DNA of 64,000 bases from Baekduia alba (GTDB taxonomy: Bacteria > Actinomycetota > Thermoleophilia > Solirubrobacterales > Solirubrobacteraceae): NCBI RefSeq assembly GCF_028416635.1, contig NZ_CP114013.1:3968001-4032000 (forward strand), given 5' to 3'. The notes beneath the pieces are model-generated. The model saw only the letters and a list, made by a program, of their open reading frames with translations, did no database searches and had not been told where the DNA came from. Positions 967-53,868 of the stretch are shown piece by piece. Position numbers and translations under genes: made by a program. Numbering within the stretch: the stretch's first letter is position 1; every line of letters starts with the position of its first letter.

Positions 967-990
967 TGGTCGGTCCTCTCCGTCGGGTGG

Positions 991-1042
991 CAGGGCACCC
1001 TTACGGGAGTAGTTAGGGTAATCTGATGTAGGGCACCCTAAC
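991..1042. promoter_or_regulatory. DtxR/IdeR-like operator cluster
   Basis: The intergenic region between 966 (minus) and 1057 (plus) contains AGGGCACCCTTA (992-1003), then GTTAGGGT (1012-1019) facing ACCCTAAC (1035-1042), with GTAGGGCACCCTA (1028-1040) inside. The core TAGGG-N2-CCCTA also appears at 8778-8789 and, as AAGGGTACCCTT, at 6154-6165. It resembles the TTAGG...CCTAA arms of actinobacterial iron boxes. Control by the DtxR-family gene at 8010-8726 is inferred. Confidence 0.65.
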
Positions 1043-1056
1043 AAGGATCTCCAGCG

Positions 1057-2061
1057 ATGCCCTCCTCCCCCATCTCCGGCCCGCGCCCCGCCCTCTTGGC
1101 GCTCGTCGCCGCCCTCGCGGCCGTCGTGTCGGCGTGCGGATCGAGCGACCTGCCGAGCGCCGGCGAGACGCGCACGATCCGCGACGCGCGCGGCACGCAG
1201 GTCGCCGTCCCGACCCGGCCCAAGCGCGTGATCACGCTCAGCGAGCCCACGCTCGACGCCGCGCTGGCGCTCGGCGTCCACCCCATCGCCACGACCAGCG
1301 GCCGCGGGCAGGGCGGCGTCTCCTCCTACCTCGCTCGGCGGGCGCACGGCATCCCGATCCTCGGCGCCCTCGGCCAGCCCAACATCGAGCGCGTCGCCGC
1401 GCTGCGCCCCGACCTCATCCTGGTCGACGGCACCTCCGTCCAGGACGCCTCGATCGTCGACAAGCTGCGGCGCATCGCGCCCACCGCGTACGTCAGCAGG
1501 ACGGCTGAGGACTGGCGCTCGGCGTTCACCGCCACCGCGCGCGTGCTCGACCGCCAGCCCGCCGGCGCCCGCGTGCTCGCGGACTTCGACGCCCGTGTCG
1601 CGCGAGTCCGCGCCGCGCTCGGCGCGAACGCCGCGGCGCGGGTCAGCATCGTGCGCTGGGGCGGCATCGGCCTGCCGTCGGTGCTGATGAAGGAGCTCGC
1701 GGCGGGCCGCGTGCTCGCCGACCTCGGGCTGCGCCGACCGGCCTCCCAGGACCGGCGCGGCCCCGGCCACTCGGTGCCCGTCAGCCTCGAGAACCTGCGC
1801 GCCATCGACGGCGACTGGATGTTCTTCGGCGCGCTGGGCACCGGCGCGACCGGCGGCGTGTCCGAGACGCCCGCCGACCTGACCGCGGCGCGCAAGGCGC
1901 TGACGCTGGCGCGCGACACGCCGGGCTTCACCCGCCTGGACGCGGTGCGCGCCGACCGCGTCGTCGCGGTCGACGGCTCGGCGTGGACCAGCGCCGGCGG
2001 CCCGCTCGCCGAGCGGGTCGTGCTCGACGACGTCGCCCACGCGCTGGCGCCCGCGCGATGA
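1057..2061 (+). CDS. Iron-siderophore ABC transporter substrate-binding lipoprotein (FecB/FepB type)
   Basis: The 334-residue product has an N-terminal lipoprotein signal with lipobox VSAC, the modified cysteine being residue 27. It then follows the periplasmic-binding pattern of the FecB family: the TRTIRDARGTQVAVPTRPKRV entry strand, a GxxGQPNIERVAALRPDLI segment, and later VRADRVVAVDGSAW. This class binds ferric siderophores outside the membrane and hands them to FecCD-type permeases. No permease or ATPase lies in the window, so the partner must be elsewhere. It starts 15 nt after an iron-box-like dyad, with AAGGA upstream as a possible ribosome site, and overlaps the esterase gene by ATGA. 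Confidence 0.85.
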   Translation: MPSSPISGPRPALLALVAALAAVVSACGSSDLPSAGETRTIRDARGTQVAVPTRPKRVITLSEPTLDAALALGVHPIATTSGRGQGGVSSYLARRAHGIPILGALGQPNIERVAALRPDLILVDGTSVQDASIVDKLRRIAPTAYVSRTAEDWRSAFTATARVLDRQPAGARVLADFDARVARVRAALGANAAARVSIVRWGGIGLPSVLMKELAAGRVLADLGLRRPASQDRRGPGHSVPVSLENLRAIDGDWMFFGALGTGATGGVSETPADLTAARKALTLARDTPGFTRLDAVRADRVVAVDGSAWTSAGGPLAERVVLDDVAHALAPAR

Positions 2062-3380
2062 GGCCGCCGAAGATCCCCAAGCACCCCGCGCCCGAGGTGG
2101 TGGCCAGCGACCGGCTCGCACACCTGCGGGCCGACCTCGACGCGGCCGGCACGGCCGGGCGCGCCGCCGTCCTGGACCGCTTCTGGGCCGCGGTCGCCGC
2201 GGCCGGCACGCCGCTGGTCGAGCCGCGCGACGGCGAGCCGCGCCACCGCACGGTGACGTTCCTGTGGCGCGACCGCCGCGGCAACGGCCCTGGCACCCGC
2301 GAGGTCGTCCTGCTGGCCAACAAGCTGACCGACCCGAGCGTGTGGGACGCGAGCACGCTCGAGCGCCTGCCCGGGACCGACGTCTGGCACCGCAGCTTCC
2401 GGTTGCGCGCGGACTGGCGCGCGACCTACCAGCTCGCGCCCGCCGATCGCGACGACGTCCAGGACGGCCCGGCGATCACGGGCCCGCCGTCGCGCTGGGG
2501 CGCCGCCGCGGCGCGCGCGACTTCCGACCCCTACAACATCGTCGCGCCGTTCCCGTCGCGCTACGGCGTCGCCCCGCACTCGGTCGTCGAGCTGCCCGAC
2601 GCGCCGCCGCAGCCGTGGGTGGCCGCGCGCGACGGCGTCCCGCGCGGCACCGTCGCCGCCCACCGCGTCGCCAGCGCGATCCTCGGCAACGAGCGCGACG
2701 TCTGGCTCTACACGCCCGCGCCGGAGCTCGGCGCGGCGGACGCGGCCAACGCGGCCGACGCGCTGATCCTCCTCGACGGCGAGGACTGGGCGACGCGGCT
2801 GCCGGCCGCGACCATCCTGGACAACCTGATCGCGGCCGGCGCGATCCCGCCGACCGTGGCGATCATGCCCTCGACGGTCGACAACGCGACGCGCTGGCGC
2901 GAGCTGGCGTGCTCGGCCGACTTCGTCGGGTTCCTGGCCGGCGAGCTGCTGCCGTGGGCGGCCAGCCACCGCCCGCTCGCCGCCGACCCCGCGCGCACGA
3001 CGCTGGCCGGCCGCAGCCTCGGCGGCCTGACCGCGCTGTTCGCGGCGCTGCGCGCGCCCGAGCGCTTCGGCCGCGTGCTGTCGCAGTCGGCGTCGCTGTG
3101 GTGGCCGTCGGCCACGGACTTCGACGCGGGCGCCGGCGCGATCGTCGACGCCTACGTCGCCGCCGCGCCGGTCCCGGTCCGCTTCCACCTGGAGGTCGGC
3201 CTGCAGGAGTGGGCGCTGCTGGCCCGCCATCGCCACCTGCGCGACGTGCTCGCGCTCAAGGGCCACGACCTGTCCTACGTCGAGTACCACGGCGGGCACG
3301 ACGCGCTGTGCTGGCAGGGCGGCCTGGCCGACGGCCTCGTCGCGCTGACCGCCGACCGCCGCGCCGCTCCGGCCCTTTGA
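2058..3380 (+). CDS. fes: Enterochelin esterase homologue
   Basis: This 440-residue alpha/beta hydrolase hydrolyses ferric catecholate trilactone siderophores in the cytoplasm to release iron. The N-terminal half (to about residue 200) matches the Fes-specific domain, with TVTFLWRD, LLANKLTD and VWHRSFRL segments. The C-terminal half is the esterase-D-like domain, with nucleophile Ser at about 320 in GRSLGG and the catalytic His at about 414 in GGHD. It overlaps the binding-protein stop by four bases, so the two are translationally coupled. No siderophore synthesis genes are present, so the substrate could be a scavenged xenosiderophore. Confidence 0.88.
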   Translation: MRPPKIPKHPAPEVVASDRLAHLRADLDAAGTAGRAAVLDRFWAAVAAAGTPLVEPRDGEPRHRTVTFLWRDRRGNGPGTREVVLLANKLTDPSVWDASTLERLPGTDVWHRSFRLRADWRATYQLAPADRDDVQDGPAITGPPSRWGAAAARATSDPYNIVAPFPSRYGVAPHSVVELPDAPPQPWVAARDGVPRGTVAAHRVASAILGNERDVWLYTPAPELGAADAANAADALILLDGEDWATRLPAATILDNLIAAGAIPPTVAIMPSTVDNATRWRELACSADFVGFLAGELLPWAASHRPLAADPARTTLAGRSLGGLTALFAALRAPERFGRVLSQSASLWWPSATDFDAGAGAIVDAYVAAAPVPVRFHLEVGLQEWALLARHRHLRDVLALKGHDLSYVEYHGGHDALCWQGGLADGLVALTADRRAAPAL

Positions 3381-3388
3381 ACACCCCA

Positions 3389-4570
3389 TCAGCGCACGAC
3401 GACCTTCCCCTTCATCTTGGGGTGGATGCTGCACACGTAGCGGAACGTGCCGGCCCGGGCCAAGCGGTGCTTGAACGTGCCCTTGGCGACGATCTTGGAC
3501 CGGAAGCCGGGGCCGACCACGTCGTGCGGCGTGCCGCCGTCGCGCCACGTCCACGTCACGGTCCCGCCCTTGCGGACGGTGACCGTGGCGGGGGTGAACC
3601 TGATGTTCTTCAGGCTGACCGCGGCCTTCGCGGGGGCGGCCGCGGCGGCCCTGGCCTGTGCAGCGGCGCGCGCGGCGAGGACGACCGCGAAGGACTCGGT
3701 CGCGGCGCCCACGACCGGGAGCGTGACCGTCACGCGCACGGTCACCGCGAGCCGGTGCGCACGCTGGAGCGCCGCGCGGGCGCGGGCGTCGAGGCGGATC
3801 GCCATGGCCAGGCGGCCGCCGGCCGACGTGCGTCGCGTGGCCTTGCCGACGCTCACCAGCGCGGTCCGGCGGCCGGGGGCCTTGACCGTGCCGCGCTGGG
3901 CGCGCACGTCCACGGCGACCCTCGTGCGCGCGCCCGCGTGCGTGACCGTGCCGCGTACGACCGTTCCCTTCTGGCGCTGGGCGACCGCGATCCTCGGTGC
4001 CGGCGGGGTCGTGGTCGATCCCGCGGCCGGCGCGGTGCCGCCGCCCGGGGCGGTGCCGCCGCCGTTACCGCCGCCGCCCGACGTCGTCGGGGTGGTCGTC
4101 GGCGTGGTCGGCGTCCCGGTGCCGGTGGGCGGCGCGGTCGTGGTCGTCAGGTCGGCCTCGACCACGACCGACCCCTTCATGTCGTGCTCGGGGACGTCGC
4201 AGAAGAACTGGTAGGTGCCCGCCTGGGCGAACGTGCAGGTGCCGGCCCAGCCCTCCTCCTCGGGCGCGGGCGGGACGACCTTGCTGTTGGTGGCGTTGCC
4301 GACGCCGTCGGTCTGCGTGCAGGCGACGCCGTCGCGGACGAACCGGACGTCGTGCTCGTCGGCGCCGTCGGGGTAGGCGAAGTCGACCTTGCCGCCCTGG
4401 GCGATCGTCACCGACGTGCCGGACCCACCGGCCGCCTGGAACGCGTTGTCGACGACGACGAACGACGCGGTCGTCGGCGCGGCGCCGATCGCGCCGCCCG
4501 CGGCCAGGCCGCAGCCCAGCGCGCCGGCGGCGACGACGACGACCGCCGCGACCTTCCGGCGGCGCCTCAT
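3389..4570 (-). CDS. Exported protein with two cupredoxin domains
   Basis: This is a 393-residue exported protein with a hydrophobic N-terminus. Two plastocyanin-like domains flank a Thr/Gly/Pro-rich linker (about 141-195) and a beta-rich middle region. The first domain carries copper-ligand candidates His73, Cys124, His129 and Met131. The second has His349, Cys380, His383 and Met386 (PHDVVG ... YVCSIHPKMKG). Both ligand sets are complete, so type-1 copper binding is likely in each. Its start overlaps the stop of the secreted protein at 4567 (ATGA). The locus looks metal-regulated, so an electron-transfer or copper/iron redox role at the surface is plausible but inferred. Confidence 0.82.
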   Translation of the reverse strand: MRRRRKVAAVVVVAAGALGCGLAAGGAIGAAPTTASFVVVDNAFQAAGGSGTSVTIAQGGKVDFAYPDGADEHDVRFVRDGVACTQTDGVGNATNSKVVPPAPEEEGWAGTCTFAQAGTYQFFCDVPEHDMKGSVVVEADLTTTTAPPTGTGTPTTPTTTPTTSGGGGNGGGTAPGGGTAPAAGSTTTPPAPRIAVAQRQKGTVVRGTVTHAGARTRVAVDVRAQRGTVKAPGRRTALVSVGKATRRTSAGGRLAMAIRLDARARAALQRAHRLAVTVRVTVTLPVVGAATESFAVVLAARAAAQARAAAAAPAKAAVSLKNIRFTPATVTVRKGGTVTWTWRDGGTPHDVVGPGFRSKIVAKGTFKHRLARAGTFRYVCSIHPKMKGKVVVR

Positions 4571-6105
4571 GCCGCGCTCCGGAGCGTCACGGTCCGGGTG
4601 ACCGCCGCGCCGCCGCCGACGGGCGCGACGCGGACGGTGACCTTCAGCCGGCCGGCGAGCCGCAGCGCCTGACGGCCCGCGACGGTCACCGTCAGCGTCA
4701 CGGTCGCCTTGGCGCCGGCCTTCGGCGCGACCGTCCGCGCCGTGGCCAGCGTGATGACCTTCGCCTTGCCGCCGCGCCTGGTGCGGACCTTGCCGGTCGT
4801 CCTGACCGAGACCGTGACGCGCTGGGCCGTGCCGGCGCCGAGCGCGACCCGCAGCGAGCGGCCGCCGCGCAGCAGCGTGAGCGCCGTCGGGCGCGGCACG
4901 ACGACCTTGGCCGGCGAGACCGGCGGGACGACGGCCGGCGGCGGCGTCGCGGCAGGCGGATTGGGCGTCGCGGCCGGCGGGGCGTCGGGCGTCGGGTCCG
5001 GCGCCACCACCGTGAACGGCAGCTGGACGACGCGCGCGGGCAGGTCGTTCTGCTCGCCACCGGACACGCACGACGCGCCGCCCAGCAGCCGGATCGGGCT
5101 CGCCTTGGCGGTCGTCGCGTCGGCCGGCAGGTCGACCGTGCCCGACAGCGCGCCGCCGGCGTCGGCGGTCAGGCAGGCCTTGACGCCCTGCGTGCCGAGC
5201 ATCACGCCGACCTTCTGGCCGGCCCCGGCGATCCCGCGGAAGCCGGTCGCGGTGAACGCGACGCGCTGGCCGGCGGTGACCGCCGTCTGGGCCAGCGCGC
5301 CCGCGGCCGCCGGGGCGACCGTGAAGTGCTGGATCAAGGTGGCCGCGCCGGTGGTGAGCGTGAAGGCGTGGACGCCCGCGGCCATGCCGGCCGGGATCGT
5401 CAGGCGCGCGGTCGGTGCGATCGCGCCGGTCGCGCCAGTCGCGATCGTGGTGGCCGAGTACGGCGCGCCGTCGAGCTGGATGGCCACCGGGGCGCTGGCG
5501 GCGAACGCCCCGCCGCGCACGCCGATCGACGCCGCCGCCGGGAAGACGCGGCCGTCGTAGAAGGTCGAGCTGGCGCTGACCATCCCGTAGCTGAAGTCGA
5601 CCGACGAGAAGTACGCGCCGAGGTTGATCGGCGGCGTCGGGCTCGCGCCGTCGGTGCTCAGGAGGCCGGAGAGCAGGCGCAGGACGTGCTCGCCGGCGTG
5701 CGCGCCGGCGCCGGGGCCGGTCAGCGCGAGGTCGTCGGGCAGGTCGATCCAGCCGCTGAACGTACCGTCGACCTTGGCGGCGAACGTCAGGACCCACTCG
5801 CCGCCGCCGACGTCGACCGGGGCGCCGGCGTCGGGCCCGCCGGTCTTCCAGCGGGCGACCTGCGCCTGGTCGTCCTCCTCGTCGGGCTTGAGGGCGATGA
5901 TCGGCTGGCCGGTGCCCTGGCTGCGGACGAAGCCCGTGCCCGAGATCTCGATGCGCCCGCTCTTGGCGTACGTGTCGTTGTTCAGCGTCACCGCCGCGCC
6001 GGTGCCCGGGTCGGCGTAGGTCAGCGGCGCGGCCTGCGCCGCGGCCGGGAGGACCGCCGCGAGCGCGAGCGCGGCGACGGTCGACAGCAGGGGGATTCGG
6101 GGCAT
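4567..6105 (-). CDS. Secreted multi-domain Ig-like protein
   Basis: The 512-residue product has a signal peptide (about 1-25, ending AAAQA). Its first unit carries IEISGTGFVRSQG, a long inserted segment, then FSGWIDLP and HVLRLLSG, matching the motif order of the two small secreted proteins at the left edge. Further beta-rich units follow, then a Pro/Ala/Thr linker and a C-terminal Arg/Lys-rich beta domain. It is the first gene of a two-gene unit with the cupredoxin and lies divergent from the beta-propeller gene across the 6152 palindrome. It is probably a cell-wall or surface adhesin-like protein. No enzymatic motif is visible. Confidence 0.72.
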   Translation of the reverse strand: MPRIPLLSTVAALALAAVLPAAAQAAPLTYADPGTGAAVTLNNDTYAKSGRIEISGTGFVRSQGTGQPIIALKPDEEDDQAQVARWKTGGPDAGAPVDVGGGEWVLTFAAKVDGTFSGWIDLPDDLALTGPGAGAHAGEHVLRLLSGLLSTDGASPTPPINLGAYFSSVDFSYGMVSASSTFYDGRVFPAAASIGVRGGAFAASAPVAIQLDGAPYSATTIATGATGAIAPTARLTIPAGMAAGVHAFTLTTGAATLIQHFTVAPAAAGALAQTAVTAGQRVAFTATGFRGIAGAGQKVGVMLGTQGVKACLTADAGGALSGTVDLPADATTAKASPIRLLGGASCVSGGEQNDLPARVVQLPFTVVAPDPTPDAPPAATPNPPAATPPPAVVPPVSPAKVVVPRPTALTLLRGGRSLRVALGAGTAQRVTVSVRTTGKVRTRRGGKAKVITLATARTVAPKAGAKATVTLTVTVAGRQALRLAGRLKVTVRVAPVGGGAAVTRTVTLRSAA

Positions 6106-6151: not shown

Positions 6152-6182
6152 GTAAGGGTACCCTTACAGATTCTGTAGGGTG
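6152..6182. promoter_or_regulatory. Perfect DtxR-type palindrome
   Basis: GTAAGGGTACCCTTAC at 6152-6167 is a perfect 16-bp palindrome. It is followed by a half-site, TGTAGGGTGA (6174-6183). It lies midway between the divergent genes starting at 6105 and 6236 and shares its AGGG/CCCT core with 991-1042 and 8777-8790, which supports a common repressor. Confidence 0.7.
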
Positions 6183-6235: not shown

Positions 6236-7999
6236 TTGTCCATCAAGAACCTGCGCCGAACGGGGCTGCGCCTGCCGGCGCTGCTGTCCGCCATCGGCGT
6301 CCTCGGGGTCCTGCCGGCCACGGCCGGTGCCGACCTGACTTCCACCTCGATCACCCAGGCCTCGACCGGCAAGGTCGTCGCGTTCGACACCACCACCAAC
6401 GCGTTCCTGAAGAACTACTCCTTCACGAACCTGCTCGGCAGCGACGGCGTCGTCGGCGGCGGCTACGCCTTCGGCAACGCCAACGCCTCCGGCATCGCGT
6501 CGGCGACCAACCGCGGGACCGCGAACAACCCGTACGGGATCGCGCTCGCGCCCGACCCGGCGGCGCCCGCCGACCCGTGGCTCGTCACGGCCCAGACGCG
6601 CACCGGGTCGGTGGCGGTCTTCAAGTCGTCGGCTACCGCGCCGGCCAACGCCGACGTCATCACCAAGAACCCGGACGGCACGACGGCCGCGTTCTCCCGC
6701 GTCCGCACGCCGCGCGTCTACCCGGACACCGACCTGCCGGCCTCCAACGGCTCGCCGCTGGCCTTCGTGGCCAACTACAACGCGACGACCGGCTACGTCG
6801 CGGTCGTCGACGTCAAGCAGAAGAAGGTCGTCGCGCGCCTCAACGCGCCCGGCGTCGCCGACCTCGCGATCGACGTCGCCCACCAGCGCCTCTACGCCGG
6901 CACGTTCGCTGCGCCGAACCTCGGCGACGTGCTCGTGTTCGACCTGACGACGATCGACACCGGCAACCCCAACGTCGCGTCGCAGGCCGGCAACCAGCCG
7001 ATCGACACCATCGACACCCAGAGCGGCGGCGTCGACCAGGACAACTCGCGCCCGGCCTACGACCCGGTCCGCGACCGCATCTACACGGCCAACTCCTCGG
7101 CCAACAGCGTCTCGGTGATCGACGCGTCGACCGGCCTGCTGGTCAAGACGATCCCCGTGGCCGGCACGCCGAACGCCGCGACCGTCGACAGCACGCGCGG
7201 CCTCGTCTACGTCGCGAGCCTCAGCGGCCAGGTCGTGACCGTCATCGAGGAGGACGCCGACCCGGCCAACGACGCGCCGGTGCTGACGATCCCGACCTAC
7301 GGCCGCGTCATCGCGACCGCGGTCGACGAGGCCTCCGGCACGGCCTACATCTCGGAGATGAGCTCCGGCACGATCCGGGCCGCCAAGGTCACCGAGAGCG
7401 GCGGCACCTACTCGGCGTCGATCGTCGAGCTGAAGTCCGGCATCGTCCTCGGCTACGAGGCGGTCGTCGACCAAGTCAACCACAAGCTCTACGCGGCAGA
7501 CGCCCAGCCGCTGACGGCGACGCGGACCAAGGTCGTCGACGAGAACGGCAGCGCGCAGGGCCCGGTCGGGCCGACCGGCGCGGCGGGCGCCAACGGCGCG
7601 GCCGGCGTGAACGGCGCCACGGGTCCCACCGGCGCCGCCGGCCCGGCGGGCGCGATCGGCCCGGCCGGACCCGTCGGCAACCTGTCGCTGGAGCTGACGC
7701 TCGGGTCGATCAAGGTCGTCGGCCGCTCGGCCTCGGTCAAGGTCCCGGCGGCCGGCGTCGCCAAGGCCACCGTCAAGTCCGGCGCCACCACGATCGCGAC
7801 CGGCACCGCCACCGCGACGAAGGCCGGCACGCTGAAGATCGCGCTGAAGAAGACCGCCAAGGGCGCGGCGTTGTTGAAGAGGAAGGCCGTCGCGGCGACG
7901 CTGACGGTCACGTTCACGCCCAAGGGCGCGAAGGCGGCCGCGGCCCTGCGCTCGACCAAGGTGCGGCTCGCCCGCACCGCGGTCGAGCACCGCCGCTAG
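6236..7999 (+). CDS. Secreted YVTN-type beta-propeller with collagen-like segment
   Basis: The TTG start at 6236 is chosen because AAGGAG lies 7 nt upstream, giving 587 residues with a signal peptide ending near ATAGA. Residues about 30-435 show repeated propeller blades (YVAVVDVKQKKVVARL, VSVIDASTGLLVKTI, LVYVASLSGQVVTVI), as in surface-layer YVTN/YncE proteins. Residues about 442-481 consist of some 13 Gly-X-Y triplets, a collagen-like stretch. A Lys/Ala-rich beta domain ends the chain. It is divergent from the Ig-like/cupredoxin unit and probably shares the 6152 operator. It is likely a cell-surface binding or scaffold protein; the ligand is unknown. Confidence 0.8.
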   Translation: MSIKNLRRTGLRLPALLSAIGVLGVLPATAGADLTSTSITQASTGKVVAFDTTTNAFLKNYSFTNLLGSDGVVGGGYAFGNANASGIASATNRGTANNPYGIALAPDPAAPADPWLVTAQTRTGSVAVFKSSATAPANADVITKNPDGTTAAFSRVRTPRVYPDTDLPASNGSPLAFVANYNATTGYVAVVDVKQKKVVARLNAPGVADLAIDVAHQRLYAGTFAAPNLGDVLVFDLTTIDTGNPNVASQAGNQPIDTIDTQSGGVDQDNSRPAYDPVRDRIYTANSSANSVSVIDASTGLLVKTIPVAGTPNAATVDSTRGLVYVASLSGQVVTVIEEDADPANDAPVLTIPTYGRVIATAVDEASGTAYISEMSSGTIRAAKVTESGGTYSASIVELKSGIVLGYEAVVDQVNHKLYAADAQPLTATRTKVVDENGSAQGPVGPTGAAGANGAAGVNGATGPTGAAGPAGAIGPAGPVGNLSLELTLGSIKVVGRSASVKVPAAGVAKATVKSGATTIATGTATATKAGTLKIALKKTAKGAALLKRKAVAATLTVTFTPKGAKAAAALRSTKVRLARTAVEHRR

Positions 8000-8009
8000 C
8001 CGGTGGGCG

Positions 8010-8726
8010 TCAGCCGCGCGCCGTCACGTAGACCTGGCGCGCGGCGCGCTCGCCGACCACGACCTTGGCGCTGCGCCCGACGCCGACCGTGAGCCGGCCG
8101 GCGGCCGGGTGGACGTCCTGGACGCGCAGGCCGGCGCCGGGGACCAACCCCTCGTCGAACAGCCAGCCGATGAGCTCGGGGTCGTCCTCGACGATCCCGA
8201 CGATCCGGCAGCGCGCGCCCTCCTCGAGCTCGATGAGCCGCCGCAGGTCGCCCGCCTCCTGACGCTCGTCGCCCGCGCCGACCGGCCAGCCGTGCGGGCA
8301 GCGCGCCGGCGACCCGAGCCGCTCGTGGAGGCGGTCGATCATGTCCGGGCGGAACGCGTCGCGCATCCGGGTCGCGTCGGCGTGGACCTGCGCGGGCGCG
8401 TAGCCCATGAAGGACACCAGGAACGTCTCGATCACGCGCGTCGCGCGGATCGCCTGCTCGGCCAGCTCGATGCCCGTCGCCGTCAGCGCCAGCGAGCGGC
8501 CGGGGCCGCGCTCGATCAGGCCCTGGTCCGCCAGCCGCCGGAGCATCTCGCCGGCCGACGCGCGTGACACGCCGAGCCGATCGGCGACGCGCGAGGCGAT
8601 CGGCGCGGCCGCCTCGTTGGGGCGGTACTCGCCCACCGGGAAGAGCAGCTCGTACAAGATCTCCACGTAGTCGGCCGCACGCTGGCTGGTGGCTCCTCCG
8701 GGCACGGCGCCGAGTCTATGCGGCAC
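8010..8726 (-). CDS. DtxR/MntR-family transcriptional regulator with altered metal site
   Basis: This 238-residue regulator (GTG at 8726; a GTG at 8704 is an alternative) has an N-terminal winged helix, a dimerisation domain with the family signature RCPHG (142-146), and a C-terminal FeoA/SH3-like domain (about 165-235). Asp19 and Glu22 occupy the MntR-like N-terminal metal positions. In the dimerisation helix the canonical Cys/Glu-x2-Glu-His ligands align with Thr119, Arg122 and Asp123; only His115 is kept. Metal sensing may therefore be lost or different. It is divergent from 8792 across an AGGG/CCCT dyad, which suggests autoregulation. It is the best candidate regulator of the three similar dyads. 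Confidence 0.85.
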   Translation of the reverse strand: MPHRLGAVPGGATSQRAADYVEILYELLFPVGEYRPNEAAAPIASRVADRLGVSRASAGEMLRRLADQGLIERGPGRSLALTATGIELAEQAIRATRVIETFLVSFMGYAPAQVHADATRMRDAFRPDMIDRLHERLGSPARCPHGWPVGAGDERQEAGDLRRLIELEEGARCRIVGIVEDDPELIGWLFDEGLVPGAGLRVQDVHPAAGRLTVGVGRSAKVVVGERAARQVYVTARG

Positions 8727-8776
8727 CCACCGCGTCCTGTCGCCGACCCCGCGATTCCCGACCGCACCGCTATGTA

Positions 8777-8790
8777 TTAGGGTGCCCTAC
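8777..8790. promoter_or_regulatory. DtxR-type operator abutting a start codon
   Basis: TTAGGGTGCCCTAC ends one base before the G preceding the ATG at 8792. The TAGGG and CCCTA arms match the other two boxes of the locus. Such placement would block initiation of the plus-strand gene, possibly on a leaderless or very short-leader mRNA, and could also feed back on the regulator at 8726. Confidence 0.62.
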
Positions 8791-8791
8791 G

Positions 8792-9346
8792 ATGACGCGC
8801 ACGATCGACCGCTGCGGCGCCCCGCAAGGCTGCGTCCGCCACGCGCTGCTGGCCCTCTCCGCCACGCCCGACGCGGACGCGGCGGCCGCCCGTCGCGGCC
8901 TCGCCGAGCTGGCCGGGCGGCTCGAGGCCGCCCGCTCCGGCGCGCCCCGTCAGGAGCTGGCGGCCTGCGGCGAGCTGCTGGCCGCCGCGTTCACGGCGGA
9001 CCGCTCGGGCGCGCCCGACAGCTTCCGCCTCGACGTCGCGCTGGCCCGCGGCAGCGGTGCGCCGCTCATCCTCGGCGCCGTCGCGGTGAATGCCGCCCGT
9101 GACGCCGGCATCGCGCTGGGCCTGCTCGCCGGTCCGGCGGGCCGGCTGGTCGTCGCGCACGCGATGCTGTCCCGGCCGCTCGTGCTCGACCTGGCCGACG
9201 ACTTCGCGCCGCGCGACATCGGCGGCGAGGAGGCGCTGCACCGGTGGCTGTGCGCCCACGAGACCGCCCGGCGCGTCGGCGCCCAGGTCCGCTCCGCCGA
9301 CGCGGACGCCGCGCCGCTTCGGTGCGCCGCGGCCGCCGCCGTCTAG
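8792..9346 (+). CDS. SirB1/transglutaminase-like protein
   Basis: This 184-residue cytoplasmic protein shows the SirB1-type transglutaminase-like pattern: a helical N-terminus, then RLDVALARGSGAPLILGAVAVN, a GLAGPAGRLVVAHAM strand with a conserved His, and LVLDLADDF. Members are non-classical transglutaminase-fold proteins of unclear activity. The N-terminal cysteines (residues 8 and 14) are unusual. The ATG follows directly after an operator-like dyad and no Shine-Dalgarno sequence is apparent, so leaderless translation is possible. Its membership of the metal-type regulon is inferred from the box. Family assignment is moderate because the sequence is diverged. Confidence 0.5.
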   Translation: MTRTIDRCGAPQGCVRHALLALSATPDADAAAARRGLAELAGRLEAARSGAPRQELAACGELLAAAFTADRSGAPDSFRLDVALARGSGAPLILGAVAVNAARDAGIALGLLAGPAGRLVVAHAMLSRPLVLDLADDFAPRDIGGEEALHRWLCAHETARRVGAQVRSADADAAPLRCAAAAAV

Positions 9347-9356
9347 TGTCGTGAAA

Positions 9357-10040
9357 CTAGAGCAGCGCGGCGCCGTCGACGTGCTCGACGGCGATCGGCC
9401 CGCCGGCCAGGAGGGCGACCGCGCCGACGTGCTCGGCATCGGGCGCGACGTCGGCGATCGAGCAGGTCGCCGGGAGGGCCGGCCGCCCGGCGAAGGCCAG
9501 CAGCCGCGGCGGCTCGTCCGGCGCCGAGACCGCGACGTCGCGTGGCTCGACCGCCAGCCCGTCGCCCGTGGCCTTCAGGACCGCCTCCTTCCGCGTCCAC
9601 CACGTCAGCAGCGCCCAGCGCCGCGCCGCCTCGTCGCGGCCGGCACAGCAGCGCGCGAAGGCGTCGCGCTCGGCCCGCGCGAGGATCCCGGCGGCCAGCT
9701 CTCCGGCATCGGGCGCGCCGGCGAGCGCCTCGACGTCGACGCCGACCGGCGCGATCCGCGTCACGGCCACCGCCACCAACGCGCCCGCGTGCGCGACCGA
9801 CACGTACAACTCGGCGCCCTCGACGACCGGCGCCCGACCGCGCGCCCGCCGCACGCGGGCGTCCGGGCCGCCGTGCTCACGGACGAGCGCGTCGGTCAGC
9901 AGGACGCCGGTCGCGTGCCGAGCGCGATCGTCCGGGTGGCGCAGCCGGGCGAGCCGTGCACGGACCTCGTCGTCGAGCCGCGACGGATCCGGGCGCGACG
10001 GCCGCGCCCAGGCCACCTGACAGCCGCGCGGGCCCAGCAC
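9357..10040 (-). CDS. 4'-phosphopantetheinyl transferase, Sfp type
   Basis: This 227-residue enzyme transfers 4'-phosphopantetheine from CoA to a Ser on carrier proteins. The diagnostic motifs are present: SVAHAG (81-86), GVDVEAL with metal-binding Asp102 and Glu104, and WWTRKEAVLKATG with Glu152 and Lys156. The length is normal for Sfp-type enzymes of NRPS/PKS pathways. The start is a GTG directly after the small gene at 10042-10212, in the order MFS exporter, small protein, transferase. Next to siderophore-uptake genes a siderophore NRPS target is plausible, but no carrier protein or NRPS is in the window. Confidence 0.9.
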   Translation of the reverse strand: MLGPRGCQVAWARPSRPDPSRLDDEVRARLARLRHPDDRARHATGVLLTDALVREHGGPDARVRRARGRAPVVEGAELYVSVAHAGALVAVAVTRIAPVGVDVEALAGAPDAGELAAGILARAERDAFARCCAGRDEAARRWALLTWWTRKEAVLKATGDGLAVEPRDVAVSAPDEPPRLLAFAGRPALPATCSIADVAPDAEHVGAVALLAGGPIAVEHVDGAALL

Positions 10041-15466: not shown

Positions 15467-16090
15467 TCACGCCGCCCACAGCCCGAGGCGCCGGTAGCGG
15501 GGCTCGAACACCAGCTGGTTGACGATCCTGAGCGGCCCCGGCAAGGCCGAGAAGAACCGCGCCCGCGTCTCGGCGCTGGCGCCGTCGACGATCCACGGGA
15601 CGTACATCGCCGCGCCCTTCAGGCCCTGCTTGCGGCGCATCGCCGCACCGAACCCGCGCCAGTCCGCGGGCTCGAGGACCTCCTGGATCAGCGGCAGCGC
15701 GCTGCTCTCCTCGTGCTTCAGATGGCCGTCGAGGACCCCGGCCAGCTCGTCGACGCGACGGGCGAGCACGGCGTCGTCGCCACCGGCGAGCGCCGCGTCG
15801 AGCGCCTCGAGCAGGGGGTCGAGCACCGCGTGCTCGTCCTCCATCTCCTGCAGCATCGCCAGGCGCCCCGGATCGTCGCCGATCGCCCGGTAGAGCCGCG
15901 GCCACAGGTCGTCGTCCTCGACGGTGTGATGGACGTGCAGCTGCGCCTTGAAGTTCGCCCACCCGGCCTGGACCGACGACGAGCCGGCTCGGCCCGTGGC
16001 GATCGCCGCCGCCAGGCGCTGCACGTCACGCCGCAGCGCGTCGTGCGTGACGTACATCATGGTGAAGTCGATCTGCTGTGTTTCGCTCAT
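15467..16090 (-). CDS. Hemerythrin-domain protein (paralogue 1)
   Basis: The 207-residue protein begins MSETQQIDFTMMYVTHDALRRD and shows the hemerythrin HHE pattern: LHVHHTVEDDDLWPRL, EDEHAVLDPLLEALD and HLKHEESSALPLIQEV. Together these supply the His/Glu/Asp ligands for a di-iron centre. The last third (YVPWIVDGA ... PRYRRLGLWAA) is a conserved C-terminal extension. It overlaps the RibBA-like stop by four bases and is the last gene of the ring-cleavage operon, so it may store or sense O2/iron for the dioxygenases. A close paralogue lies at 53233-53868. Confidence 0.85.
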   Translation of the reverse strand: MSETQQIDFTMMYVTHDALRRDVQRLAAAIATGRAGSSSVQAGWANFKAQLHVHHTVEDDDLWPRLYRAIGDDPGRLAMLQEMEDEHAVLDPLLEALDAALAGGDDAVLARRVDELAGVLDGHLKHEESSALPLIQEVLEPADWRGFGAAMRRKQGLKGAAMYVPWIVDGASAETRARFFSALPGPLRIVNQLVFEPRYRRLGLWAA

Positions 16091-53232: not shown

Positions 53233-53868
53233 ATGAGCGCCACCGACAAGGACCCGATCGACTTCACGATGATGTACGTCACGCACGACGCGCTGCGGCG
53301 CGACGTGCGCCGGCTGGCGTCCGCCGCGTCCACGCGACGCGCCGACACGCCCGCGGTCCGCAAGGGCTGGGAGAACTTCAAGGCCCAGCTGCACCTGCAC
53401 CACACGGTGGAGGACGACGACCTCTGGCCGCGGCTCTACCAGGCCATCGGCGACCGTCCGGACCGCCGCAAGCTGCTGGAGGACATGGAGGCCGAGCACG
53501 CCGTCCTCGACCCGCTGCTGACCGCCACCGACGACGCGTTCACCACCATGTCGGGCGACGCGCTCAACGATCGCCTCGTCGAGCTCACCGCCGCGCTGGA
53601 CACCCACTTCGAGCACGAGGAGCAGAGCGCGCTCCCGCTCATCCAGGAGGTCCTGACCGAGAAGGACTGGAAGAGCTTCGGCAAGTCGATGGCCAAGGCC
53701 CAGGGCTTGAGCGGCGCGGCCGTCTACGTGCCGTGGATCGTCGACGGCGCGACGGCGGAGAAGCGCCGCCAGTTCTTCTCGGTCCTCCCCGCGCCCGTCA
53801 AGGTGCTCAACCGGCTGGTGTGGGAGCCGCGCTACCGCCGCAGCGGACCGTGGGCGGCCGGCGCCTGA
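53233..53868 (+). CDS. Hemerythrin-domain protein (paralogue 2)
   Basis: This 211-residue paralogue of the protein at 15467 has the same opening (IDFTMMYVTHDALRRDV), HLHHTVEDDDLWPRLYQAIGD, EAEHAVLDPLL, HFEHEEQSALPLIQEVL and the C-terminal YVPWIVDGA ... EPRYRRSGPWAAGA. The di-iron ligands are present. The C-terminal extension is as conserved as the hemerythrin core, which implies it matters for function. It is divergent from MarR and probably induced by the signal that releases it, in contrast to copy 1, which is embedded in the catabolic operon. Confidence 0.87.
   Translation: MSATDKDPIDFTMMYVTHDALRRDVRRLASAASTRRADTPAVRKGWENFKAQLHLHHTVEDDDLWPRLYQAIGDRPDRRKLLEDMEAEHAVLDPLLTATDDAFTTMSGDALNDRLVELTAALDTHFEHEEQSALPLIQEVLTEKDWKSFGKSMAKAQGLSGAAVYVPWIVDGATAEKRRQFFSVLPAPVKVLNRLVWEPRYRRSGPWAAGA

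What the first reader, a model, noticed from the sequence alone, without database searches (positions are those of the whole stretch)
8010..8726. DtxR-fold regulator that lost most metal ligands
The dimerisation-helix ligands (Cys/Glu, Glu, His in DtxR/MntR) align with Thr119, Arg122 and Asp123, while Asp19, Glu22 and His115 remain. The fold, the RCPHG motif and the FeoA-like domain are intact. The protein may sense another ligand, bind metal in a new way, or act constitutively.
Basis: partly seen in the sequence, partly recalled or inferred. Interest (0 to 1): 0.62.

Follow-up and report, generated by a model that had tools for sequence, protein, structure and literature searches.

The report
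Rewired iron regulator beside siderophore genes
A soil bacterium's iron-type gene switch has kept its DNA-reading half but lost several of the residues with which its relatives hold iron or manganese, and it sits inside a set of iron-scavenging genes that carry matching DNA target sites.

Summary
The gene (8010-8726, minus) encodes a three-domain DtxR/IdeR/MntR-type protein, and Thr119/Arg122/Asp123 align without gaps with Cys102/Glu105/His106 of IdeR. It is not a lone oddity: it belongs to a third DtxR clade of the class Thermoleophilia, and its genome also has MntR- and IdeR-like proteins with intact ligands. Clade-wide the primary site is rebuilt (Cys102 to Asp, Glu105 to Gly, His106 to Asp) while His79/Glu83/His98 stay. 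Some Solirubrobacteraceae branches then lost His96 and Asp119 together; the window branch also gained Arg122. Of 88 clade genes, 65 lie near ZIP, FbpABC-like, FTR1, Fec, siderophore or FeoB-like genes, and many have a dyad TWAGG-N4-CCTWA. The window gene lies at an enterobactin-type siderophore locus with three such dyads. Best reading: a local repressor of iron acquisition whose classical two-metal switch is broken. Whether it senses metal weakly, is locked by Arg122, or is overshadowed by IdeR is untested. New variant of a known kind.

The parts
8010..8726 (-). DtxR-type regulator with degenerate metal ligands (the finding); start may be 8705
   Evidence: ORF; Pfam domains; alignments; model pLDDT 90
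8777..8790 (.). dyad TTAGGGTGCCCTAC between the regulator and 8792-9346; TGTATTAGGGTG[C/G]CCTA is conserved in L039 at the same distance from the regulator
8792..9346 (+). divergent partner gene, transglutaminase-like fold (weak); homologues adjoin the regulator in L039 and Conexibacter
   Evidence: weak Pfam hit under the cut-off; neighbours; alignment; fold search without a match at E 0.001
6153..6166 (.). perfect dyad TAAGGGTACCCTTA, the only exact TAAGG-N4-CCTTA in the genome
6236..7999 (+). probably secreted protein (by eye) with collagen-like repeats, divergent from 4567-6105 across the 6153 dyad
4567..6105 (-). probably secreted protein (by eye), no Pfam match; a protein with 36% identity (50 bits) adjoins the regulator in L166/L167
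3389..4570 (-). protein with two cupredoxin-like stretches
1057..2061 (+). FecB-type periplasmic binding protein (Peripla_BP_2)
2058..3380 (+). Fes-type enterochelin esterase (Enterochelin_N plus Esterase)
1028..1041 (.). dyad GTAGGGCACCCTAA before the FecB/Fes pair
990..1003 (.). weaker dyad GCAGGGCACCCTTA (two mismatches) in the same intergenic region
9357..10040 (-). 4'-phosphopantetheinyl transferase (ACPS family), expected partner of the NRPS genes upstream of the window

Best explanation
It is a local DtxR-type repressor of an enterobactin-type siderophore locus. As a dimer it binds TWAGG-N4-CCTWA dyads at its own/8792 promoter, at 6153 and at 1028, and holds down siderophore uptake (and perhaps synthesis) genes. 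Its DNA-reading helix is unchanged from some clade members, but the classical two-metal switch of IdeR/DtxR cannot operate as known, because the His79, Cys102 and Glu105 equivalents are Thr, Thr and Arg. The input is most likely loosened: either a single weak Fe/Mn site from Glu100, His115 and Glu180 (about 40% in my judgement), or DNA binding that needs no metal, with Arg122 sitting among Asp19, Glu22 and Asp123 in place of the cation (about 30%), while the IdeR-like protein of the same genome supplies iron sensing at the same kind of box. Shown by tools: domains, ligand identities, clade, dyads, neighbours. Inferred: binding, repression, the sensing step.
For: Domains and fold: (Z 25.5 to a Mn repressor, about 20-22 to IdeR, ScaR and SloR). 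Locus: FecB and Fes genes; genes with EntF, EntB, EntE, EntC, EntA-like and SIP domains just upstream of the window; PPTase. Dyads: 4 in the window (up to 2 mismatches) against 0.32 expected, 0 of 100 shuffles reaching 4; 10 sites in the 5.86-Mb genome at up to 1 mismatch, 3 of them here. Clade dyads: exact TWAGG-N4-CCTWA 43 times in 20.7 kb around the starts of 87 distinct clade genes against 29 in 1,099 kb elsewhere, reversed-pattern control 0. In 11 genomes of two other families (f7, f10) 19 of 22 TAAGG-N4-CCTTA sites lie within 6 kb of a clade gene. A close IdeR orthologue was not found in 8 of 8 genomes outside the family that hold the clade protein. The window's recognition helix VSRASAGEML is letter-identical to that of L115 and L106. 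65 of 88 clade loci have a metal-uptake or siderophore gene within 6 kb, and one more an Nramp. Print gives TTAGGNNNNCCTAA as the one-dimer IdeR site (PMC8464063 passages).
Against: Same-genus genomes without the clade protein (G001, G005, G006) carry such boxes at FecB-, FTR1- and ferritin-like genes, so IdeR can explain the window's boxes. The genome-wide count is only 10 against 4 for the reversed control; over 11 family genomes without the clade protein the sums are 72 against 34, over 8 with it 130 against 30. In the 11 f7/f10 genomes the reversed pattern occurs 11 times against 22. Three f5 genomes that hold the clade protein have neither form of the box. 46 of 86 clade genes have no exact dyad in their upstream region, the siderophore-linked L042, L166, L168, L169 and L172 among them. 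No binding data exist, and distances in the site were not measured.
Confidence: 0.55

Rival explanations
1. A single-metal regulator: the surviving half of the ancillary site (Glu100, His115, Glu180, perhaps Asp182) binds Fe(II) or Mn(II) well enough to switch DNA binding, so it is an ordinary iron repressor with an unusual site.
For: E100 kept in 67 of 67 rows, H115 in 64, E180 in 62, even in rows where other ligands are lost. In IdeR the ancillary site has the higher affinity for most metals and fills first (PMC10317159 passages).
Against: The His79 equivalent is Thr96 and the Glu172 equivalent Gly177; primary-site mutations are the more severe in IdeR. The five Conexibacter-type rows have K180.
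Confidence: 0.4
2. Metal-independent regulator: Arg122 pairs with Asp19, Glu22 and Asp123 and mimics the bound cation, so that the dimer is always DNA-competent and competes with IdeR at shared boxes.
For: T96 and R122 occur together in both members of the window branch (SH-aLRT 100), with D19, E22 and D123 kept. An IdeR orthologue is present in all 7 family genomes tested, which could relax the need for metal sensing.
Against: Only two sequences carry this set; proximity is inferred from the ligand equivalence, not measured. The G017 group lost ligands without an arginine (S/G119, A/G122, A123). L087 and L089 of the same family keep the clade norm.
Confidence: 0.3
3. Decaying or minor paralogue: the boxes here are read by the IdeR-like protein (genome 5413104) and the window protein has little regulatory role.
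For: Boxes at iron genes in same-genus genomes that lack the protein; IdeR orthologue present; long stem (0.94) of the window pair.
Against: Open frame, all three domains intact; DNA-binding domain 81% and recognition helix 87% identical to L039 against 70% in the dimer/metal part and 64% in FeoA; dyad kept at the same distance in L039.
Confidence: 0.25
4. It senses an organic ligand, such as the siderophore or a catechol intermediate, instead of a metal.
For: Sits at a siderophore locus, as do the ligand-poor G017-group relatives.
Against: No pocket or ligand evidence; the Conexibacter relatives lost ligands with no siderophore gene seen by eye among the six nearest genes on either side (some contigs are short).
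Confidence: 0.08

Closest known systems
IdeR/DtxR (actinobacterial iron repressors)
   Same: Three domains, fold (Z about 20-22), dyad half-sites TTAGG/CCTAA, iron-gene setting
   Different: Cys102, Glu105 and His79 equivalents lost, Met10 is Asp19; NCBIfam NF053665 score 59 against a cut-off of 290
MntR/ScaR/SloR-type Mn repressors (best chain 5zr6)
   Same: Closest fold (Z 25.5, 29% identity); Asp19 at the Met10 position, as PMC10317159 gives for MntR
   Different: Thr/Arg/Asp where the paralogue MntR rows have Glu/Glu/His; NF047407 score 99 against 350; no Nramp gene seen by eye near it
Third DtxR clade of Thermoleophilia (described here; not found in print by the searches, of which 56 showed 15 of 694 papers)
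   Same: Whole length, P30/G32/Y34 after helix 1, PHGWP, DNA-binding helix, and in L039 the dyad
   Different: Clade norm H96/D119/G122/D123 is T/T/R/D in the window

Membership tests
DtxR/MntR superfamily | N-terminal winged-helix domain (PF01325) | tested here: met
   29.3 bits against a cut-off of 26
DtxR/MntR superfamily | metal-binding and dimerisation domain fold (PF02742) | tested here: met
   63.7 bits; structural matches span residues 11-237
DtxR/MntR superfamily | C-terminal FeoA/SH3 domain (optional in the family) | tested here: met
   46.8 bits; FeoA chain 3e19, Z 14.3
IdeR/DtxR | primary-site ligands Met10, Cys102, Glu105, His106 (His106 recalled) | tested here: not met
   D19, T119, R122, D123
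IdeR/DtxR | ancillary-site ligands His79, Glu83, His98, Glu172, Gln175 (set partly recalled) | tested here: not met
   T96, E100, H115, G177, E180: two of five identical, one chemically similar
IdeR/DtxR | curated equivalog score (NF053665, cut-off 290) | tested here: not met
   59.2 bits; the IdeR-like paralogue L202 also stays under it at 130, so this is a weak test
IdeR/DtxR | TTAGG-N4-CCTAA-type operator next to iron genes | tested here: met
   sequence only, up to one mismatch
MntR | Asp8, Glu11, His77, Glu99, Glu102, His103 (recalled) | tested here: not met
   D19 and E22 kept; T96, T119, R122, D123
DtxR/MntR superfamily | metal-dependent DNA binding | not testable with these tools
   needs purified protein
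Thermoleophilia third DtxR clade | falls inside the clade on a tree | tested here: met
   SH-aLRT of a quick tree, no bootstrap: with L039 100, with Conexibacter 98, Solirubrobacteraceae set of 13 rows 97; the split from the ten paralogue rows has only 92, and the single IdeR-type row sits on a very long branch

The most novel reading that the evidence does not exclude
A DtxR-family regulator that has evolved away from metal sensing by replacing the cation with its own arginine, and works as a metal-blind partner that competes with IdeR at the same one-dimer boxes of a siderophore locus.
Probability: 0.25. Interest if true: 0.72.

Novelty: new variant of a known kind. Interest (0 to 1): 0.52.

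Why it matters
IdeR needs two metals, and both the source of the cooperativity and the role of half sites that take one dimer are listed as open questions (PMC10317159 passages). Here is a natural series: a clade norm with the Glu105 position already Gly, branches that have lost the His79 and Cys102 positions together, and one with an arginine in the site, with the DNA-reading helix largely preserved. In the genomes tested outside the window's family the clade protein may stand in for IdeR. That gives ready-made variants for asking which ligands activation needs and what one-dimer boxes do.

Tried and rejected
Chance ligand drift in one protein: rejected, shared with L039 and part of a clade-wide pattern. 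Misalignment of the ligand helix: rejected, gapless. Ordinary MntR or IdeR orthologue: rejected, both kinds are present elsewhere in the genome (L201, beside a gene that looks like Nramp by eye; L202, closest to IdeR), and the tree separates them with support 92. 'The boxes prove that this protein binds them': rejected as too strong, because genomes without it use the same boxes. A test that H96 and D119 are lost together independently: inconclusive, only 2 independent pairs on starred branches. Distances inside the predicted site: no coordinates were found among the files. Plasmid and defence-library searches led nowhere. The 8792 gene: weak Transglut_core2 hits, and a model without a Foldseek match at E 0.001 or better. 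Literature: searches listed no paper whose title or shown abstract describes such a DtxR protein; only listings were seen, except passages of PMC10317159, PMC8464063, PMC7064749 and PMC3327659; one search showed 15 of 694 papers; the library is open-access PMC only.

Rows dropped: three of 96 rows (L092, L105, L140) were mis-extracted and count as gaps, and some rows are one genome under two names, so the report uses the 67 rows (64 rows of A2, which are 63 of the 82 references listed plus the window, and L174, L175, L183). In one search the clade gene was not recognised in 10 of 104 loci by my gene caller and motif. In one search, 111 stretches encoded a relative and the best 80 were kept. 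In one search several reference proteins come from the loci counted; the FeoB of L175 matches itself and was named by eye.

Full report
WHAT IS THERE. The ORF at 8010-8726 (minus) encodes 238 residues with Fe_dep_repress, Fe_dep_repr_C and FeoA domains above their Pfam cut-offs. Its predicted structure has mean pLDDT 90 and aligns over most of its length with a manganese repressor (5zr6, Z 25.5, rmsd 1.8, 209 residues) and with IdeR, ScaR and SloR (Z about 20-22). It is a complete DtxR-type protein.

THE LIGANDS. The five printed alignments to solved relatives are gapless from residue 82 to about 146. In addition T96 stands at H79, E100 at E83, G177 at E172 and E180 at Q175. So three ligand positions have side chains that cannot be expected to bind a divalent cation in the usual way (T96, T119, R122), one is empty (G177), and D19, E22, E100, H115, D123 and E180 could still contribute. 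PMC10317159 (passages) says that mutations of the primary site (it names Met10, Cys102 and Glu105) are the more severe, that the ancillary site fills first, and that a Glu105-His79 hydrogen bond has been proposed to couple them; both partners of that bond are gone here. The remaining ligand assignments of IdeR and MntR are recalled.

THE CLADE. A search with the protein gave close relatives (71, 54, 49 and 47% identity) in 4 of 60 relatives besides the window's own genome. A five-row alignment gave matches at E 1e-40 or better in 22 of 146 genomes of the family and 148 of 399 of the class, own genome included; the weakest of these, near 1e-41, may not belong. In genome contigs 111 stretches encoded a relative, of which 80 loci were kept; their titles name Thermoleophilia, Gaiella, Conexibacter, Miltoncostaeaceae and unspecified actinobacterial bins, and one an Acidobacteriota bin. 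On a quick tree of 77 rows (ligand columns left out; SH-aLRT only) the window and L039 pair at 100, join Conexibacter at 98 and a 13-row Solirubrobacteraceae set at 97; the ten paralogue rows split off at 92, and the one IdeR-type row has a very long branch. The clade norm at positions 19, 22, 96, 100, 115, 117, 119, 122, 123 is D/E, E, H, E, H, H, D, G, D. Thus the common form already has the Glu105 position as Gly and the Cys102 and His106 positions as Asp, with the His79/Glu83/His98 trio intact. Of 67 rows, H96 is lost in 12, D119 in 15, G122 in 9, D/E/N at 123 in 11, E180 in 5, E100 in none, H115 in 3 and E22 in 3; all 12 rows without H96 also lack D119, and 3 rows lack D119 alone. This may be as few as two or three events, so no significance is claimed. 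The ten paralogue rows all have Glu, Glu, His at 119, 122, 123.

THE LOCUS. The window gene lies near a FecB-type binding protein (1057-2061) and a Fes-type enterochelin esterase (2058-3380), a phosphopantetheinyl transferase (9357-10040) and, just upstream of the window, genes with the domains of EntF, EntB, EntE, EntC, an EntA-like SDR and a siderophore-interacting protein. This is the gene content of a catecholate (enterobactin/bacillibactin-type) siderophore locus.

THE DYADS. TWAGGGNNCCCTWA with up to two mismatches occurs four times in the window, at 990, 1028, 6153 and 8777, all between genes; 0.32 are expected and none of 100 shuffles reached four. With up to one mismatch there are 10 sites in the genome (reversed control 4), three of them in this 8-kb stretch; by my arithmetic, on a stretch chosen afterwards, 0.014 would fall there if the ten were spread evenly. 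Of the other seven, five lie before SIP/FecCD genes, an FTR1 fusion, a ferritin, a FUR/VIT1 pair and an S4 ribosomal gene, one near a zinc peptidase gene, and one (3365059) was not examined. The dyad matches the one-dimer IdeR site TTAGGNNNNCCTAA proposed in PMC8464063 (passages). Window and L039 share TGTATTAGGGTG[C/G]CCTA at the same distance from the regulator.

WHO READS THE DYADS, FOR THE CLADE PROTEIN. Exact TWAGG-N4-CCTWA occurs 43 times within -200..+40 of 87 distinct clade genes (20.7 kb) and 29 times in the other 1,099 kb; 20 of those 29 lie 2.6-5.0 kb upstream, about where FbpABC-like genes lie in such loci; the reversed control occurs 0 times. In 11 genomes of two other families, 19 of 22 TAAGG-N4-CCTTA sites lie within 6 kb of a clade gene, and TTAGG-N4-CCTAA occurs 3 times. 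A close IdeR orthologue (70% identity or more) was found in 7 of 7 family genomes but in 0 of 8 outside it, where the best matches (41% or less, up to 105 bits) include the clade protein and score like MntR does in the family genomes (88-103 bits); a diverged IdeR is not excluded.

WHO READS THE DYADS, AGAINST. Same-genus genomes G001, G005 and G006, which have no clade match, carry such boxes at iron genes (gene identities by eye). In the family, sites against reversed control sum to 130 against 30 in 8 genomes with the clade protein and 72 against 34 in 11 without it; G005 and G011 are rich in sites without it. In the 11 genomes of the other families the reversed control gives 11 against 22. 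Three f5 genomes with the clade protein (G268, G175, G190) have neither form. Of 86 clade genes with a full upstream region 40 have an exact dyad there and 46 do not; 12 of the 46 have one 2.6-5.0 kb upstream and 4 Conexibacter-type loci one before the 8792-type gene, while the siderophore-linked L042, L166, L168, L169 and L172 have none. L202's helix shares Glu-Met with the clade at the Gln43 region. In the window's genome both IdeR and this protein may therefore use the boxes.

NEIGHBOURS ELSEWHERE. Within 6 kb of 88 clade genes (window included), 65 have a ZIP, FbpABC-like, FTR1, Fec, NIS-siderophore or FeoB-like gene: ZIP 31, Fbp 20, FTR1 4, Fbp+FTR1 1, NIS siderophore 6, Fec 2, FeoB-like 1; 6 have only the 8792-type gene and 17 none of these (short contigs included); one of the 17 (L174) has an Nramp. 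Pfam supports the ZIP, ABC, FTR1, IucA/IucC, monooxygenase and FecCD representatives.

MECHANISM. I take the protein to be a local repressor of this locus whose DNA half is conserved and whose input is altered. That it binds the dyads is inferred. For the input I weigh a weak single site (E100, H115, E180) above a metal-blind form with Arg122 in the old primary site. The presence of IdeR in the same genome may have relaxed the constraint, but L087/L089 keep the clade norm in the same family, so IdeR alone would not explain the loss.

NOVELTY. By domains it is a DtxR-superfamily member; it fails the ligand tests of IdeR and of MntR and their NCBIfam cut-offs, so it should not be filed as either. 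No paper on this clade was found (15 of 694 listed).

Noticed in passing
L195 (G000:C1:829001-834000) 2363-3661; L227 2288-3590: An S4 ribosomal protein gene (Pfam, L195) whose start lacks the usual cysteines (by eye), followed by a gene related to window 8792-9346, with a TTAGGG-N2-CCCTAA dyad just upstream; the same arrangement occurs in same-genus G006. Suggests iron control of an alternative S4 gene.
   Followed up: partly
window 8792-9346: Partner gene family with a weak transglutaminase-like signal; C14, H123, D133, D142, C154 and H156 are among the invariant residues in 8 sequences; adjoins the regulator in the window, L039 and Conexibacter.
   Followed up: partly
L198 382-2331: Single gene joining FTR1, a cupredoxin domain and an imelysin domain (EfeUOB-like fusion) behind a dyad.
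   Followed up: no
L039 8662-9630: Cation-efflux (CDF) gene convergent with the 71% homologue.
   Followed up: no
window 15467-16090 and 53233-53868: Two hemerythrin-domain genes with similar starts in one window.
   Followed up: no
L086 8819-9421: In Conexibacter the regulator is followed by a BioY-family gene, an odd partner for a metal regulator.
   Followed up: no
L174 and L175, regulator at 7726-8778 and 7269-8300: Longer regulators (350 and 343 aa as called) with an extra N-terminal part, Tyr at the His98 position and other ligands lost, beside Nramp (L174, Pfam) and a FeoB-like gene (L175, by eye): a further degenerate branch, with L183.
   Followed up: partly
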